From Synechococcus sp. PROS-U-1 (GTDB taxonomy: Bacteria > Cyanobacteriota > Cyanobacteriia > PCC-6307 > Cyanobiaceae): a stretch of DNA of 64,000 nucleotides. Shown piece by piece: positions 30,195-34,272 of the stretch (position 1 is the first letter of the stretch; each line of letters begins with the position of its first letter). The stretch spans positions 434,001 through 498,000 of the forward strand of contig NZ_CP047951.1 of the NCBI RefSeq assembly GCF_014279755.1, given 5' to 3'. The notes beneath the pieces are model-generated. The model saw nothing but the letters and a program-made list of their open reading frames with translations, made no database searches and was not told where the DNA came from. Both the position numbers and the translations under genes were made by a program.

Positions 30195-30581
30195 TCAGCC
30201 CAGGTACTCCTGTCGGAGTGTTTGAACACGCTGAACGAGGGCGTTGCGCTTGTCGCTGGTGGTCAGGTTCTGCCAGCTCCATTGGCCGACCACAACCACG
30301 CCGAGCAGTTCAAGTAGCCCCGGAACGATCGGTAGGAGATTGATCGTGTCCAGGATGCCCTTGATCAGAATCTGGGCAATGATGACGGCGGCAAAGATGC
30401 CAACGATCTTGCCGATGCGTCCCATCTGACTCCAGTCGACCTGGTCAAGGGTGTCGTTCACCTTGCCCAGAACGTCGCTATAGCGCTCAGCAAAGGAGGT
30501 CGTGTCTTCCTGAGCAGGAGCGTCGATGGGTGTCGTCACAGTTGTGTCGGCATCCTTGACTTCAGTGGGGGCGTCACTCAT
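30195..30581 (-). CDS. CAAD-domain thylakoid curvature protein, CurT-like
   Basis: 128 residues. An acidic N-terminus, then an amphipathic helix (ADTLDQVDWSQMG-like), two membrane spans (IVGIFAAVIIAQILIKG and NLLPIVPGLLELLGVVVVGQWSW), and a C-terminal amphipathic tail. This is the CAAD architecture of CURT1/CurT, which bends thylakoid edges. The ATG at 30581 is used; an ATG at 30593 is also in frame. It is divergent from the JAMM gene with about 64 bases between the chosen starts. Confidence 0.85.
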   Translation of the reverse strand: MSDAPTEVKDADTTVTTPIDAPAQEDTTSFAERYSDVLGKVNDTLDQVDWSQMGRIGKIVGIFAAVIIAQILIKGILDTINLLPIVPGLLELLGVVVVGQWSWQNLTTSDKRNALVQRVQTLRQEYLG

Positions 30582-30645
30582 GGAAACGACCATGTCATTC
30601 GCTATTTCAGCTGAGGGTATCGGTGAGACGCGATATACGCCATCC

Positions 30646-31119
30646 GTGCTGCAAATTGATTACCGATGCCACACGGATCTGTGCTCCACGCTCCTGGCAC
30701 CTCACCCCGAGGAGGGTTGTGCATTGCTGCTTGGCGAACGGGTCTCGCCAGGGCTCTTGAGACTTCAAACGGCCTGGCCCTGTTGCAATGTCTGGGGGCG
30801 AGGAGGATCAGAGCCGCAGCCCGTCATCGGCCGCCGCCGCAGATTTCTGGTGGACCCCAGAGAACAGCTTGCAGCGCAGCGTTGGGCTCGTGCACGTCAT
30901 CAACGTTGTCTTGGCGTGGCCCACTCCCATCCGGCTTCCCCCGCAGTGCCATCGCATCACGATCGGCTTTGGGGAGAGACTGAAGGTCTGATGCTGATTC
31001 TTTCGGCTTCTGTTGGGTTGCGGGCCTGGTGGCTGCATGGCGACCGCACCGTGGATGAAATTCCCATCCAGCTTTGGGACACTCACAACCATGCAGGACC
31101 AATCGATGCTGAGTGCTGA
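30646..31119 (+). CDS. JAMM/MPN metallopeptidase
   Basis: 157 residues from the GTG at 30646 (read as MLQIDYRCHTDL). In-frame ATGs at 30580 and 30592 exist but would abut or overlap the divergent gene. The zinc site is complete: HSHP at 93-96 and Ser103-x-x-Asp106, giving HxHx7SxxD, with an upstream Glu in EEGCALLLGE. JAMM enzymes cleave isopeptide or C-terminal Gly bonds of ubiquitin-like or sulfur-carrier proteins. It overlaps the E1/rhodanese gene, so the pair is translationally coupled. The real substrate is unknown. Confidence 0.88.
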   Translation: MLQIDYRCHTDLCSTLLAPHPEEGCALLLGERVSPGLLRLQTAWPCCNVWGRGGSEPQPVIGRRRRFLVDPREQLAAQRWARARHQRCLGVAHSHPASPAVPSHHDRLWGETEGLMLILSASVGLRAWWLHGDRTVDEIPIQLWDTHNHAGPIDAEC

Positions 31120-32227
31120 TGAGCGGGGTCGCTATGCCCGCCATCTGATCCTTCCCGAGGTTGGCTCGGCAGGCCAGCTCCGGCTGAAATCTTCGTCTGT
31201 GCTGTGTGTTGGCAGCGGGGGGTTGGGATCTCCTCTGCTGCTTTATCTGGCTGCGGCAGGCGTTGGCCACATCGGAATCGTGGATGGTGATGTGGTGGAG
31301 CTCTCCAATCTTCAGCGTCAGGTGATCCACAGCACAAGTGGGGTTGGTCGTTCCAAGGCTCGTTCGGCAGCAACTCGAATCCATGAGCTCAACCCCCACT
31401 GCCAGGTCGATGTGCACGAACACATGCTTGATGTGGACAACGCCTTGGATCTCATCGGTGATTACGACCTGGTGTGTGACGGCACCGATAACTTCCCCAG
31501 CCGGTATCTGATCAACGACGCCTGTGTGTTGCTCGGCAAGCCCCTCGTCTATGGCTCCGTGCAGCGCTTTGACGGCCAGGTCAGCGTGTTCAACCGCACG
31601 ATGACCAGCCCCAACTACCGCGATCTGCTCCCGACACCTCCTCCTCCGGACGCAGTTCCGTCTTGCTCGGAGGCTGGCGTGATGGGTGTGATGCCGGGGC
31701 TGATCGGTCTGCTTCAGGCCACGGAAGCGATCAAGTTGATCACCGGCATTGGCGAGTGCCTTGATGGTCGGCTGCTGGTGGTGGATGCCCTGGCCATGCG
31801 ATTTCGCGAACTCACCCTCCGCGTTGATCCAGACCGACCGAAGGTTGAGAGCCTGATTGACTACCGCCAGTTCTGCCGTCCGGCGTCATCGAAGATGGAA
31901 GCCATCACTGTCACGGAGCTGAAGGCCCTGCTCGACTCCGCTCCAGACGAGATTGCGCTTGTTGATGTGCGCAATCCCGCTGAAGTCGAGGTGGCTTCGA
32001 TTGAAGGAAGCCATTTGGTTCCGTTGGCCTCGCTGGAGAGTGGAGAGGCGATCGATCGCGTTCGTGGTTTGGCGGAGGGACGGCGCCTTTTGGTGCACTG
32101 CAAGCTTGGGGGGCGCTCTGCGCGTGCCGTTGAGCTGTTGGGTCAGCAGGGCATCGCGGCCACGAATGTGACCGGTGGAATTGATGCCTGGTCGCAGCAG
32201 GTGGATCCTGCAATTCCCCGCTACTGA
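31091..32227 (+). CDS. moeB: MoeB/ThiF-type E1-like adenylyltransferase with C-terminal rhodanese
   Basis: 378 residues. The N-terminal ThiF/MoeB domain has the nucleotide-binding GSGGLGSPLLLYLA and VELSNLQRQV (metal/ATP contacts), and it adenylates the C-terminal Gly of a sulfur carrier (MoaD or ThiS class). The C-terminal rhodanese domain carries active Cys337 in HCKLGGRS. Unusually, both MoeB zinc pairs are lost: NYRD (175-178) and RPKV (249-252) stand where CxxC pairs occur in typical MoeB. Its start overlaps the JAMM gene by 29 bases. Alternative ATG at 31103. Confidence 0.9.
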   Translation: MQDQSMLSADERGRYARHLILPEVGSAGQLRLKSSSVLCVGSGGLGSPLLLYLAAAGVGHIGIVDGDVVELSNLQRQVIHSTSGVGRSKARSAATRIHELNPHCQVDVHEHMLDVDNALDLIGDYDLVCDGTDNFPSRYLINDACVLLGKPLVYGSVQRFDGQVSVFNRTMTSPNYRDLLPTPPPPDAVPSCSEAGVMGVMPGLIGLLQATEAIKLITGIGECLDGRLLVVDALAMRFRELTLRVDPDRPKVESLIDYRQFCRPASSKMEAITVTELKALLDSAPDEIALVDVRNPAEVEVASIEGSHLVPLASLESGEAIDRVRGLAEGRRLLVHCKLGGRSARAVELLGQQGIAATNVTGGIDAWSQQVDPAIPRY

Positions 32228-32242
32228 ACCCCCGGTCCTGGT

Positions 32243-33391
32243 TTAGTAATCCACCCCTCTCTTCAGGTCGACGCCCTGTTCGGCGTAGTGCTTGTGGCAC
32301 ACCATCTCTGAATGGATGCTGGCCAGATCGAAATAGGCCGGAGGGTTTTTGCAGCGACCGGTGATGATCACTTCGGTTTCCGCCGGTTTGCGCAGCAGGG
32401 TCTGCAGGATCGGTTCGACGGGCAGCAGCTCCAGGTCCACCGTGGGGTTCAACTCATCGAGGATCACGGTCTTGTAGAGGCCGCTGGAGATGGCGGCCCG
32501 TGCGATCTCCCAGGCCCGTTCGGCCTCCACGTAGTCAATCGGCTCCTGCTGGCCCCGCCAGACGATGGCATCGCGGCCGGAGCGGAGGTGGTCCACCAGG
32601 TGGGGATAACTCTCGCGAAGCGCGGCGATCGCCGCGTCTTCGGTGTAGCCGCTGCCGCCTTTCAGCCACTGCAGGATCAGAACACGATGGCTCTTGTCCT
32701 GGCTGATCCCTCGACCGATGGCCTGGAGACCCTTCCCGAGTGCACTGGTCGATTTGCCTTTGCCTTCCCCGGTATAAATCTCGATGCCGCTGCTCGCATT
32801 GAGAGGCACCACCCGGTTGTCGTTCATGCCCGGACGACGATGGGCCCGCATCTCGGAGTGGAGGTCGGCTTCACGCACCAATGGGGCAGGTGCGGCCCGA
32901 CCGGTGACGATGATTTCCATCCCCTCCGGACGGTTGCTGAGGGTGCGGACCACATCCTCAAGATCCAGCAGGCCGAGGTCCAGCACTGGATTGAGTTCGT
33001 CCAGCACCACCACTGAGTAGAGGGCACTGGCGATCGCGCCTTTGGCGATCACCCACCCGCGCTGTGCTTCCTCTCGGTCAAAGCGGGTGGCTTCCTCCGC
33101 CGTGAAGTGGTCTGCCCTTCCGGTGCGAAGGTGGTCGATCAGATGTGGAAAGCCCTGCTGCAAAGCCTCGATGGCTGCATCCTCGTCGTAGGCACGGCCT
33201 GGGCCCTTGAGGAAGCGCAGCAGCAGCACACGGGTCTGCCTCTGCTCGCAGATGCCCAGTCCGATGGTGCGAAGCACAACCCCAAGGGCGGCTTGGCTTT
33301 TGCCCTTGCCCTCGCCGTCATAGATGTGCAGCTGGCCATGGCTGCGCTCGCGACTGTCGGCGGCGGTGACGATGCCGATGCTTTGAGGCAT
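32243..33391 (-). CDS. cobO: CobO-type cob(I)yrinate adenosyltransferase, tandem duplication
   Basis: 382 residues made of two complete CobO-like domains joined head to tail (about 1-190 and 200-382). Each has a P-loop (GEGKGKS at 26-32 and 208-214) and a DELNP block. The second domain's P-loop continues STSALG as in ordinary CobO; the first continues SQAALG. CobO adenosylates corrinoid in B12 biosynthesis or salvage. The duplication is in a single frame with no stop. Convergent with the E1/rhodanese gene; divergent from larE, the 53-base gap probably holding both promoters. Confidence 0.9.
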   Translation of the reverse strand: MPQSIGIVTAADSRERSHGQLHIYDGEGKGKSQAALGVVLRTIGLGICEQRQTRVLLLRFLKGPGRAYDEDAAIEALQQGFPHLIDHLRTGRADHFTAEEATRFDREEAQRGWVIAKGAIASALYSVVVLDELNPVLDLGLLDLEDVVRTLSNRPEGMEIIVTGRAAPAPLVREADLHSEMRAHRRPGMNDNRVVPLNASSGIEIYTGEGKGKSTSALGKGLQAIGRGISQDKSHRVLILQWLKGGSGYTEDAAIAALRESYPHLVDHLRSGRDAIVWRGQQEPIDYVEAERAWEIARAAISSGLYKTVILDELNPTVDLELLPVEPILQTLLRKPAETEVIITGRCKNPPAYFDLASIHSEMVCHKHYAEQGVDLKRGVDY

Positions 33392-33444
33392 GGGGGCGGC
33401 TCTTACCGTTGGAGCCTACAGAGATCAACTGGTTTTCCCCGCTG

Positions 33445-34272
33445 ATGTTTCGGTTGCAGGAGCCTTTGGCCGATCGTGAGCAGCAGCAGCTGGCTGAATT
33501 GCGGCAATGGATGGATGCGCAGTCCGCACTGTGTGTGGCCTATTCCGGTGGGGTCGACAGCACTCTGGTGGCTGCAATCGCCTATGAATCCAAGGGCAGT
33601 GCAGCCCTGGCGGTGACTGGCGTATCTCCGGCTCTAGCTCCCCATCTGTTGCGGGAGGCGCGTGACCAGGCCGCCTGGATCGGCATTCCGCATCGGGAGT
33701 GTCCAACGGGAGAGTTGAGCGACCCCGATTACAGCAGTAACCCCGTCGATCGATGCTTTGCCTGCAAGCGCGAATTGCATCACCATCTCCAGCCCATTGC
33801 CGCGGCGGCGGGCGATGCGTTGGTGATTGATGGGGTCAATCTCGATGACCTGGGTGATCATCGCCCCGGCATCGAGGCGGCCCGACAGGCTGGGGTTCGT
33901 TCCCCTCTGGCTGAATTGTCGATCGACAAAGCAGCGATCCGTCTGCTGTCGCGGGCCCTTGGTTTCCCCTGGTGGGACAAACCAGCTCAGCCCTGCTTGG
34001 CCTCTCGCTTCCCCTACGGCGAAAGCATCAGCGCCGAGCGGTTGCAGCGGGTGGGCCAGGCGGAAGCCTGGTTGATCGCCAGGGGCTTCAGCACAGTTCG
34101 TGTGCGATCCCATGGTCTTGCGGCGCGCATTGAGGTGCCCAGTGAACAGATCCGTGATGTGCTCACGCTTGCGGAAACCGATGCGCTGGTGGAGGCCTTT
34201 CGCAAGCTTGGATTCACCTCCGTCAACCTGGATCTTGAAGGTCTCGTCAGCGGCAAGTTGAACCGCCGCTGA
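33445..34272 (+). CDS. larE: LarE-type sacrificial sulfur transferase
   Basis: 275 residues from the ATG at 33445. The PP-loop ATPase motif is SGGVDST (34-40), a Cys-rich FACKREL segment follows, and the sulfur-donor cysteine is in QPCLASRFPYGE (Cys184), as in LarE, which gives its own cysteine sulfur to the nickel-pincer cofactor of lactate racemase. larB and larC are not in the window. A TTG at 33409 would extend the frame but is less likely. Downstream is speD, convergent. Confidence 0.85.
   Translation: MFRLQEPLADREQQQLAELRQWMDAQSALCVAYSGGVDSTLVAAIAYESKGSAALAVTGVSPALAPHLLREARDQAAWIGIPHRECPTGELSDPDYSSNPVDRCFACKRELHHHLQPIAAAAGDALVIDGVNLDDLGDHRPGIEAARQAGVRSPLAELSIDKAAIRLLSRALGFPWWDKPAQPCLASRFPYGESISAERLQRVGQAEAWLIARGFSTVRVRSHGLAARIEVPSEQIRDVLTLAETDALVEAFRKLGFTSVNLDLEGLVSGKLNRR

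What the first reader, a model, noticed from the sequence alone, without database searches (positions are those of the whole stretch)
30646..34272. JAMM peptidase, E1/rhodanese protein and LarE close together: possible sulfur-carrier or ubiquitin-like pathway
Seen: JAMM (HxHx7SxxD complete) overlaps an E1-like/rhodanese protein by 29 bases, and LarE (Cys184, PP-loop) lies about 1.2 kb away, beyond the CobO gene. Known: JAMM and ThiF/MoeB proteins act on ubiquitin-like or thiocarboxylated sulfur carriers, and JAMM-E1 pairs occur in bacterial cysteine and cofactor pathways. Inference: one enzyme charges the carrier's C-terminal Gly, rhodanese provides sulfur, and JAMM trims or regenerates it. 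No carrier gene lies here, and LarE may be unrelated.
Basis: partly seen in the sequence, partly recalled or inferred. Interest (0 to 1): 0.65.

Follow-up and report, generated by a model that had tools for sequence, protein, structure and literature searches.

The report
JAMM peptidase maturing thiamine carrier ThiS
In marine Synechococcus and many Prochlorococcus the sulfur-carrier protein for vitamin B1 is made with extra residues on its business end, and the peptidase gene in this window is very probably what cuts them off, because extra residues are found almost only in genomes that keep the peptidase and are gone where the peptidase has decayed.

Summary
In detail: an intact JAMM gene overlaps a MoeB/MoeZ-type E1-rhodanese gene by 29 bases, and LarE lies 1.2 kb further on beyond a reverse-strand CobO. 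No carrier lies in the window. The genome has two: MoaD (ends GG) and ThiS, which ends GGG-Ser, one residue past the C-terminal glycine the E1 must activate. The genome has one E1.

Across cyanobacteria, tails after ThiS GGG (1-22 residues, no conserved sequence) occur almost only where the JAMM is present. In the Synechococcus/Prochlorococcus family, 69 of 77 JAMM+ genomes are tailed. Of 13 genomes with the E1 locus but no JAMM, 12 are untailed. At least four separate losses inside the tailed clade accompany tail loss, most with JAMM remnants in place. Ten newly found tailed genomes outside the family were predicted JAMM+ before testing; all ten were. A correlated-evolution test rejects independence (p=1.6e-4).

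Best explanation: the JAMM matures pro-ThiS to expose GGG, then the E1 charges it for thiazole synthesis. Capped-carrier maturation is known (QbsD/QbsE); its use on thiamine ThiS appears unreported. The JAMM-E1 pair itself was listed in 2006 as uncharacterised. LarE is a syntenic bystander. Cleavage has not been shown.

The parts
30592..31119 (+). JAMM/MPN+ (Prok-JAB) peptidase, proposed pro-ThiS maturase; frame open from 30526, likely starts ATG 30592 or GTG 30646
   Evidence: PF14464 6.6e-16; catalytic Glu, HxH, Ser, Asp invariant in 40 aligned homologues; model pLDDT 87 matches PfJAMM1:SAMP2 and CsRpn11:Ub structures
31091..32227 (+). MoeB/MoeZ-like E1 adenylyltransferase with C-terminal rhodanese; the only ThiF-family protein found in the genome
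31091..31119 (+). 29-base overlap of the JAMM and E1 reading frames (probable co-transcription)
32243..33391 (-). Tandem CobO corrinoid adenosyltransferase: neighbour, not part of the system
   Evidence: PRK07413; kept where the JAMM is lost
33448..34272 (+). LarE, CXXC-C type: syntenic neighbour, not part of the system
   Evidence: TIGR00268; kept where the JAMM is lost. The proposed substrate gene, thiS, lies outside the window near G000:C1:919232-919441 (-), locus L002, downstream of thiE

Best explanation
The JAMM is the maturation peptidase of the thiamine sulfur carrier. ThiS is translated as a pro-form with one or more residues after its GGG end (Ser here). The JAMM cuts after the last Gly. 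The adjacent E1 then adenylates the exposed glycine, the rhodanese domain supplies persulfide sulfur, and ThiS thiocarboxylate feeds thiazole synthesis. Shown by computation: intact enzyme motifs, capped ThiS, single E1, and correlated presence and loss of JAMM and cap. From known chemistry: a capped carrier cannot be adenylated on its glycine. Inferred: that this JAMM does the cutting and that it is needed for thiamine synthesis.
For: (1) ThiS ends GGG-S, MoaD ends GG; one E1 in the genome. (2) Family: 69 of 77 JAMM+ genomes tailed; 12 of 13 JAMM- genomes with the E1 locus present untailed. (3) Losses in at least four lineages of the tailed clade, with broken JAMM remnants between CAAD and E1 in G205 and G268, fainter ones in G294/G311, and a shortened gap in g2. 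(4) Prediction noted before the test: 10 of 10 newly found tailed genomes outside the family are JAMM+. (5) Dependent over independent evolution, LR 22.5, p=1.6e-4 with G209 counted against. (6) Tails vary from S to 22 residues, as expected of a discarded propeptide. (7) In the near-complete single-contig genomes G026, G100, G174 and G181, ThiS is the only carrier found, and it is tailed with a JAMM present. (8) Literature: capped sulfur carriers typically need a protease such as QbsD to expose GG (PMC6006322); CsRpn11 cuts its ubiquitin precursor exactly after Gly-Gly (PMC6043591).
Against: No cleavage assay. thiS is not next to the JAMM. Most JAMM+ cyanobacteria outside the family have untailed ThiS, so the JAMM has, or had, another role there. 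G209 (90% complete, fragmented) is tailed with E1 present but no JAMM found. The tree is one gene (E1), and some deep branches are weak. Outside the family, association in the first sample alone is modest (Fisher p=0.027).
Confidence: 0.82

Rival explanations
1. The JAMM works on other carriers or conjugates (for example CysO-like release of cysteine, as Mec+ does, or removal of Ubl conjugates); the ThiS cap is removed by a general peptidase or is harmless.
For: Most cyanobacteria outside the family carry a third, CysO-like carrier and have untailed ThiS with a JAMM, so an ancestral role other than ThiS maturation is likely. Fold is close to conjugate-cleaving JAMMs.
Against: The third carrier is not found here or in most of the marine clade searched; cap and JAMM are lost together repeatedly; some genomes have ThiS as their only detected carrier.
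Confidence: 0.1
2. Coincidence of genome reduction: Prochlorococcus lost both the JAMM and the ThiS cap through streamlining without a functional link.
For: The losses inside the tailed clade are all in small Prochlorococcus-type genomes.
Against: Equally small JAMM+ genomes (1.7-1.9 Mb) keep both cap and JAMM. Streamlining does not explain why tails outside the family were found only on JAMM+ backgrounds.
Confidence: 0.04
3. JAMM, E1 and LarE form one sulfur pathway (nickel-pincer or other cofactor).
For: Conserved proximity in the family.
Against: The whole block from tyrA to ppc is syntenic, mostly unrelated genes; LarE and CobO persist where the JAMM is gone; CobO lies on the other strand.
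Confidence: 0.02

Closest known systems
QbsD-QbsE / PtmS1-PtmS2 capped sulfur-carrier maturation (PMC6006322); HcyD-HcyS of Wolinella (from memory)
   Same: JAMM peptidase, carrier with residues after GG, E1-type activator; cap must be removed before charging
   Different: Those carriers serve siderophores, antibiotics or methionine, and the qbs/ptm ones are encoded beside their JAMM; here the carrier is housekeeping ThiS for thiamine, encoded about 454 kb away
Iyer et al. 2006 operon type 4b: JAB + E1-rhodanese in cyanobacteria (PMC1779556)
   Same: The same gene pair, listed in cyanobacteria including Prochlorococcus and Synechococcus, as an uncharacterised operon
   Different: No substrate was named; the authors noted complete absence of JAB from thiamine operons and predicted a distinct mechanism. 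Here ThiS is identified as the probable substrate
CsRpn11 / PfJAMM1 with archaeal ubiquitin or SAMP
   Same: JAMM fold (Z about 17); CsRpn11 cuts precursors exactly after Gly-Gly
   Different: Archaeal proteins of a conjugation or SAMP system; low identity (13-25%)
Mec+/CysO/MoeZ of Mycobacterium (from memory)
   Same: JAMM plus MoeZ-like E1-rhodanese acting on a beta-grasp carrier
   Different: Mec+ releases cysteine from CysO-Cys; no CysO-like carrier was found in this genome

Membership tests
JAMM/MPN+ metallopeptidase (Prok-JAB) | Glu + HxHx7SxxD motif | tested here: met
   E41, H111, H113, S121, D124 invariant in 40 homologues
JAMM/MPN+ metallopeptidase (Prok-JAB) | MPN fold | tested here: met
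   Model pLDDT 87; top matches are JAMM/BRCC36/Rpn11 structures, Z 17-18
JAMM/MPN+ metallopeptidase (Prok-JAB) | Zinc-dependent peptidase activity | not testable with these tools
   Needs an assay
MoeB/MoeZ-type E1 with rhodanese | ThiF adenylation domain plus rhodanese with active Cys | tested here: met
   ThiF 2.7e-78, Rhodanese 1.8e-11, Cys337 in CKLGGRSA
MoeB/MoeZ-type E1 with rhodanese | Equivalog-level score for PRK07411 (MoeB) or PRK07878 (MoeZ) | tested here: not met
   543 of 633 and 458 of 647 bits; the subfamily model PRK05690 is passed, 297 over 266. So 'MoeB/MoeZ-like', not filed as either
Capped sulfur-carrier maturation system (QbsD/QbsE type) | Carrier with residues beyond the C-terminal Gly-Gly | tested here: met
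   ThiS ...IVGGGS
Capped sulfur-carrier maturation system (QbsD/QbsE type) | Cap occurs only with the JAMM, by co-occurrence | tested here: met
   Covariation, prospective test and Pagel-type test; one unresolved exception, G209
Capped sulfur-carrier maturation system (QbsD/QbsE type) | Carrier gene beside the JAMM gene | tested here: not met
   thiS is about 454 kb away; so it works like this system but is not filed as a member of that operon family
Capped sulfur-carrier maturation system (QbsD/QbsE type) | JAMM removes the cap in vitro | not testable with these tools
   Needs an assay
Iyer 2006 operon type 4b | JAB gene adjacent to E1-rhodanese in cyanobacteria | tested here: met
   29-base overlap here; adjacent in 39 of 50 loci of other families
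Mec+/CysO cysteine pathway | CysO-like carrier in the genome | tested here: not met
   Only MoaD and ThiS found at E<=0.001
Nickel-pincer (Lar) pathway | LarE family membership | tested here: met
   TIGR00268, 282 bits over cut-off 150
Nickel-pincer (Lar) pathway | LarA, LarB, LarC in the genome | not tested

The most novel reading that the evidence does not exclude
JAMM, E1 and ThiS form a reversible ubiquitin-like cycle: besides maturation, ThiS is conjugated to proteins and released by the JAMM, so that a vitamin carrier doubles as a protein modifier in marine picocyanobacteria.
Probability: 0.05. Interest if true: 0.9.

Novelty: new variant of a known kind. Interest (0 to 1): 0.68.

Why it matters
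It proposes a substrate for a cyanobacterial JAMM-E1 gene pair listed as uncharacterised in 2006 and puts a JAMM into thiamine synthesis, from which that survey said JAB was completely absent. It predicts an extra maturation step for vitamin B1 in very abundant marine phototrophs, and a strain difference: genomes with tailed ThiS need the JAMM; Prochlorococcus-type genomes that lost the JAMM do not. It also gives a repeated natural example of a propeptide and its protease being lost together. All of this is directly testable with small proteins.

Tried and rejected
LarE as a partner: rejected. CysO/cysteine pathway here: no third carrier. Assembly gaps as the cause of tailed JAMM- genomes: tested with the E1; five of seven lack the E1 too and one has the E1 cut by a contig end (G304), so they are gaps; only G209 remains. 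'JAMM requires a tail': false, since many JAMM+ genomes are untailed. Weak PF14464 hits (under 50 bits) were counted as JAMM-; they are probably other JAB-like proteins (not checked). One search read minus-strand loci in the wrong orientation (redone); misread G069 (corrected: untailed). Papers: no report of capped cyanobacterial ThiS or of a JAMM acting on thiamine ThiS in the held open-access library; subscription papers are not covered. The pattern searches miss tails beginning with TGY/TGG and atypical ThiS ends.

Full report
What is there. The JAMM frame (30526-31119, +) and the E1-rhodanese gene (31091-32227, +) overlap by 29 bases. Pfam gives Prok-JAB 6.6e-16 for the first and ThiF 2.7e-78 plus Rhodanese 1.8e-11 for the second. 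The E1 lies nearest the MoeB/MoeZ models of NCBIfam but under their equivalog cut-offs. The JAMM motif is complete, and its five catalytic residues are invariant over 40 homologues. An AlphaFold model (pLDDT 87) matches BRCC36, PfJAMM1:SAMP2 and CsRpn11:Ub structures at Z 17-18. Downstream lie a reverse-strand tandem CobO and LarE.

Context. The pair is old: in 39 of 50 JAMM loci of other cyanobacterial families the E1 is directly downstream. LarE is not part of it. In the window's family a block of 11 genes from tyrA to ppc is syntenic, and LarE and CobO remain where the JAMM is gone. Iyer et al. (PMC1779556) listed the JAB/E1-rhodanese pair in cyanobacteria as uncharacterised and noted that thiamine operons never contain JAB.

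The carrier. The whole genome (2.58 Mb, one contig) has two beta-grasp carriers: MoaD, ending FTGG, beside moaE; and ThiS, ending IVGGGS, downstream of thiE. It has one ThiF-family protein, the E1 of the window. An E1 adenylates the terminal glycine (established chemistry), so ThiS with a Ser cap must first be trimmed.

Test 1, the family (Synechococcus/Prochlorococcus/Cyanobium; names). ThiS ends were read for genomes with known JAMM status. JAMM+: 69 tailed, 8 untailed. JAMM- with the E1 locus present: 12 untailed, 1 tailed (G209); Fisher p=5e-9, not corrected for kinship. Seven tailed genomes first looked JAMM-. Five lack the E1 as well and one has the E1 cut at a contig end, so those are assembly gaps. 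G209 stays unresolved: its E1 sits in another neighbourhood and the JAMM was not found in either of two searches. Where the JAMM is truly lost from the tailed clade, the genes around the gap are in place. G205 and G268 hold JAMM homology broken by stops and frame changes between CAAD and E1 (tblastn about 1e-11 to 1e-12), G294/G311 hold fainter remnants, and g2 has a shortened gap. Their JAMM+ relatives keep tails: in genus g3 C, A and DSP against none in G294/G311; in g112 SLY and SYS against none in G268.

Test 2, phylogeny. On an E1 tree the JAMM losses fall in at least four places inside the tailed clade and once in an untailed lineage. A four-state likelihood test prefers dependent over independent evolution: LR 22.5, p=1.6e-4 with G209 scored as JAMM-; p=1.6e-5 with it unknown. 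The fitted tail-loss rate is high without the JAMM and near zero with it. Caveats: one gene tree, FastTree, weak support at some deep nodes.

Test 3, other families. Among 173 genomes outside the family, DNA patterns found 10 with tails; all are among the 122 JAMM+ and none among the 51 JAMM- (Fisher p=0.027). Ten further tailed genomes of unknown status were then found. The prediction that all carry the JAMM was written down and held 10 of 10 (the G375 copy is in two pieces). At a background of about 0.7 this has p about 0.03 by itself. Some of these genomes are relatives (G463/G467/G494; G357 and G375 have identical ThiS), so independent events number fewer than ten. Eleven further g2 genomes without pattern matches were JAMM-, as predicted.

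The tails. They run from one residue (S, A, C, N, T, F, I) to 22 (ALPDPFFHLTRVAPALFRNGWR) with no shared sequence. That fits a discarded propeptide rather than a functional tail. MoaD had none in the genomes read. One CysO-like carrier has an Arg after GG (G072, JAMM+).

Limits. JAMM+ untailed genomes are the majority outside the family, so tail maturation is not the only, nor probably the first, role of the JAMM; the CysO-like carrier common there is a candidate, but it also occurs without the JAMM. No activity is shown. The statement that capped thiamine ThiS is unreported rests on an open-access library.

Mechanism. Pro-ThiS is translated; the JAMM cuts after the last Gly (inferred; precedents QbsD, PMC6006322, and CsRpn11, PMC6043591); the E1 adenylates and the rhodanese domain thiolates it (family knowledge); ThiS thiocarboxylate serves thiazole synthesis. 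Evolutionary reading (inference): a JAMM makes stop-codon drift of thiS harmless; once a tail is fixed the JAMM becomes necessary; a mutation restoring GGG-stop frees the cell to lose the JAMM, as several Prochlorococcus-type lineages did.

Noticed in passing
32243-33391: CobO is a tandem duplication of the corrinoid adenosyltransferase domain in one protein (PRK07413); each half keeps a P-loop-like GEGKGKS.
   Followed up: no
33448-34272: LarE has CXXC (103, 106) plus Cys183, the pattern of [4Fe-4S]-dependent LarE of Thermotoga maritima (PMC9283937), not of the single-Cys sacrificial L. plantarum enzyme. LarA/B/C in this genome not tested.
   Followed up: partly
L003-L032, L063, L064: A third, CysO-like carrier ending PAIAGG/PAVAGG is common in cyanobacteria but not found in this genome or most of the marine Synechococcus/Prochlorococcus searched. 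It occurs both with and without the JAMM, so its partner is unclear.
   Followed up: partly
L015 (G072): The CysO-like carrier of one JAMM+ genome ends GGR, the only cap seen on that carrier in the 30 loci read.
   Followed up: no
L295, L415 (G209): E1 lies in a different neighbourhood, ThiS is capped with Ser, no JAMM found in a 90% complete genome: the one possible exception.
   Followed up: partly
L289 (G292): ThiS with a 22-residue tail after GGG (ALPDPFFHLTRVAPALFRNGWR), the longest seen; JAMM present.
   Followed up: no
31091-32227: The E1 lacks the zinc CXXC pairs of E. coli MoeB (NYRDL in place of CYRCL; comparison from memory).
   Followed up: no
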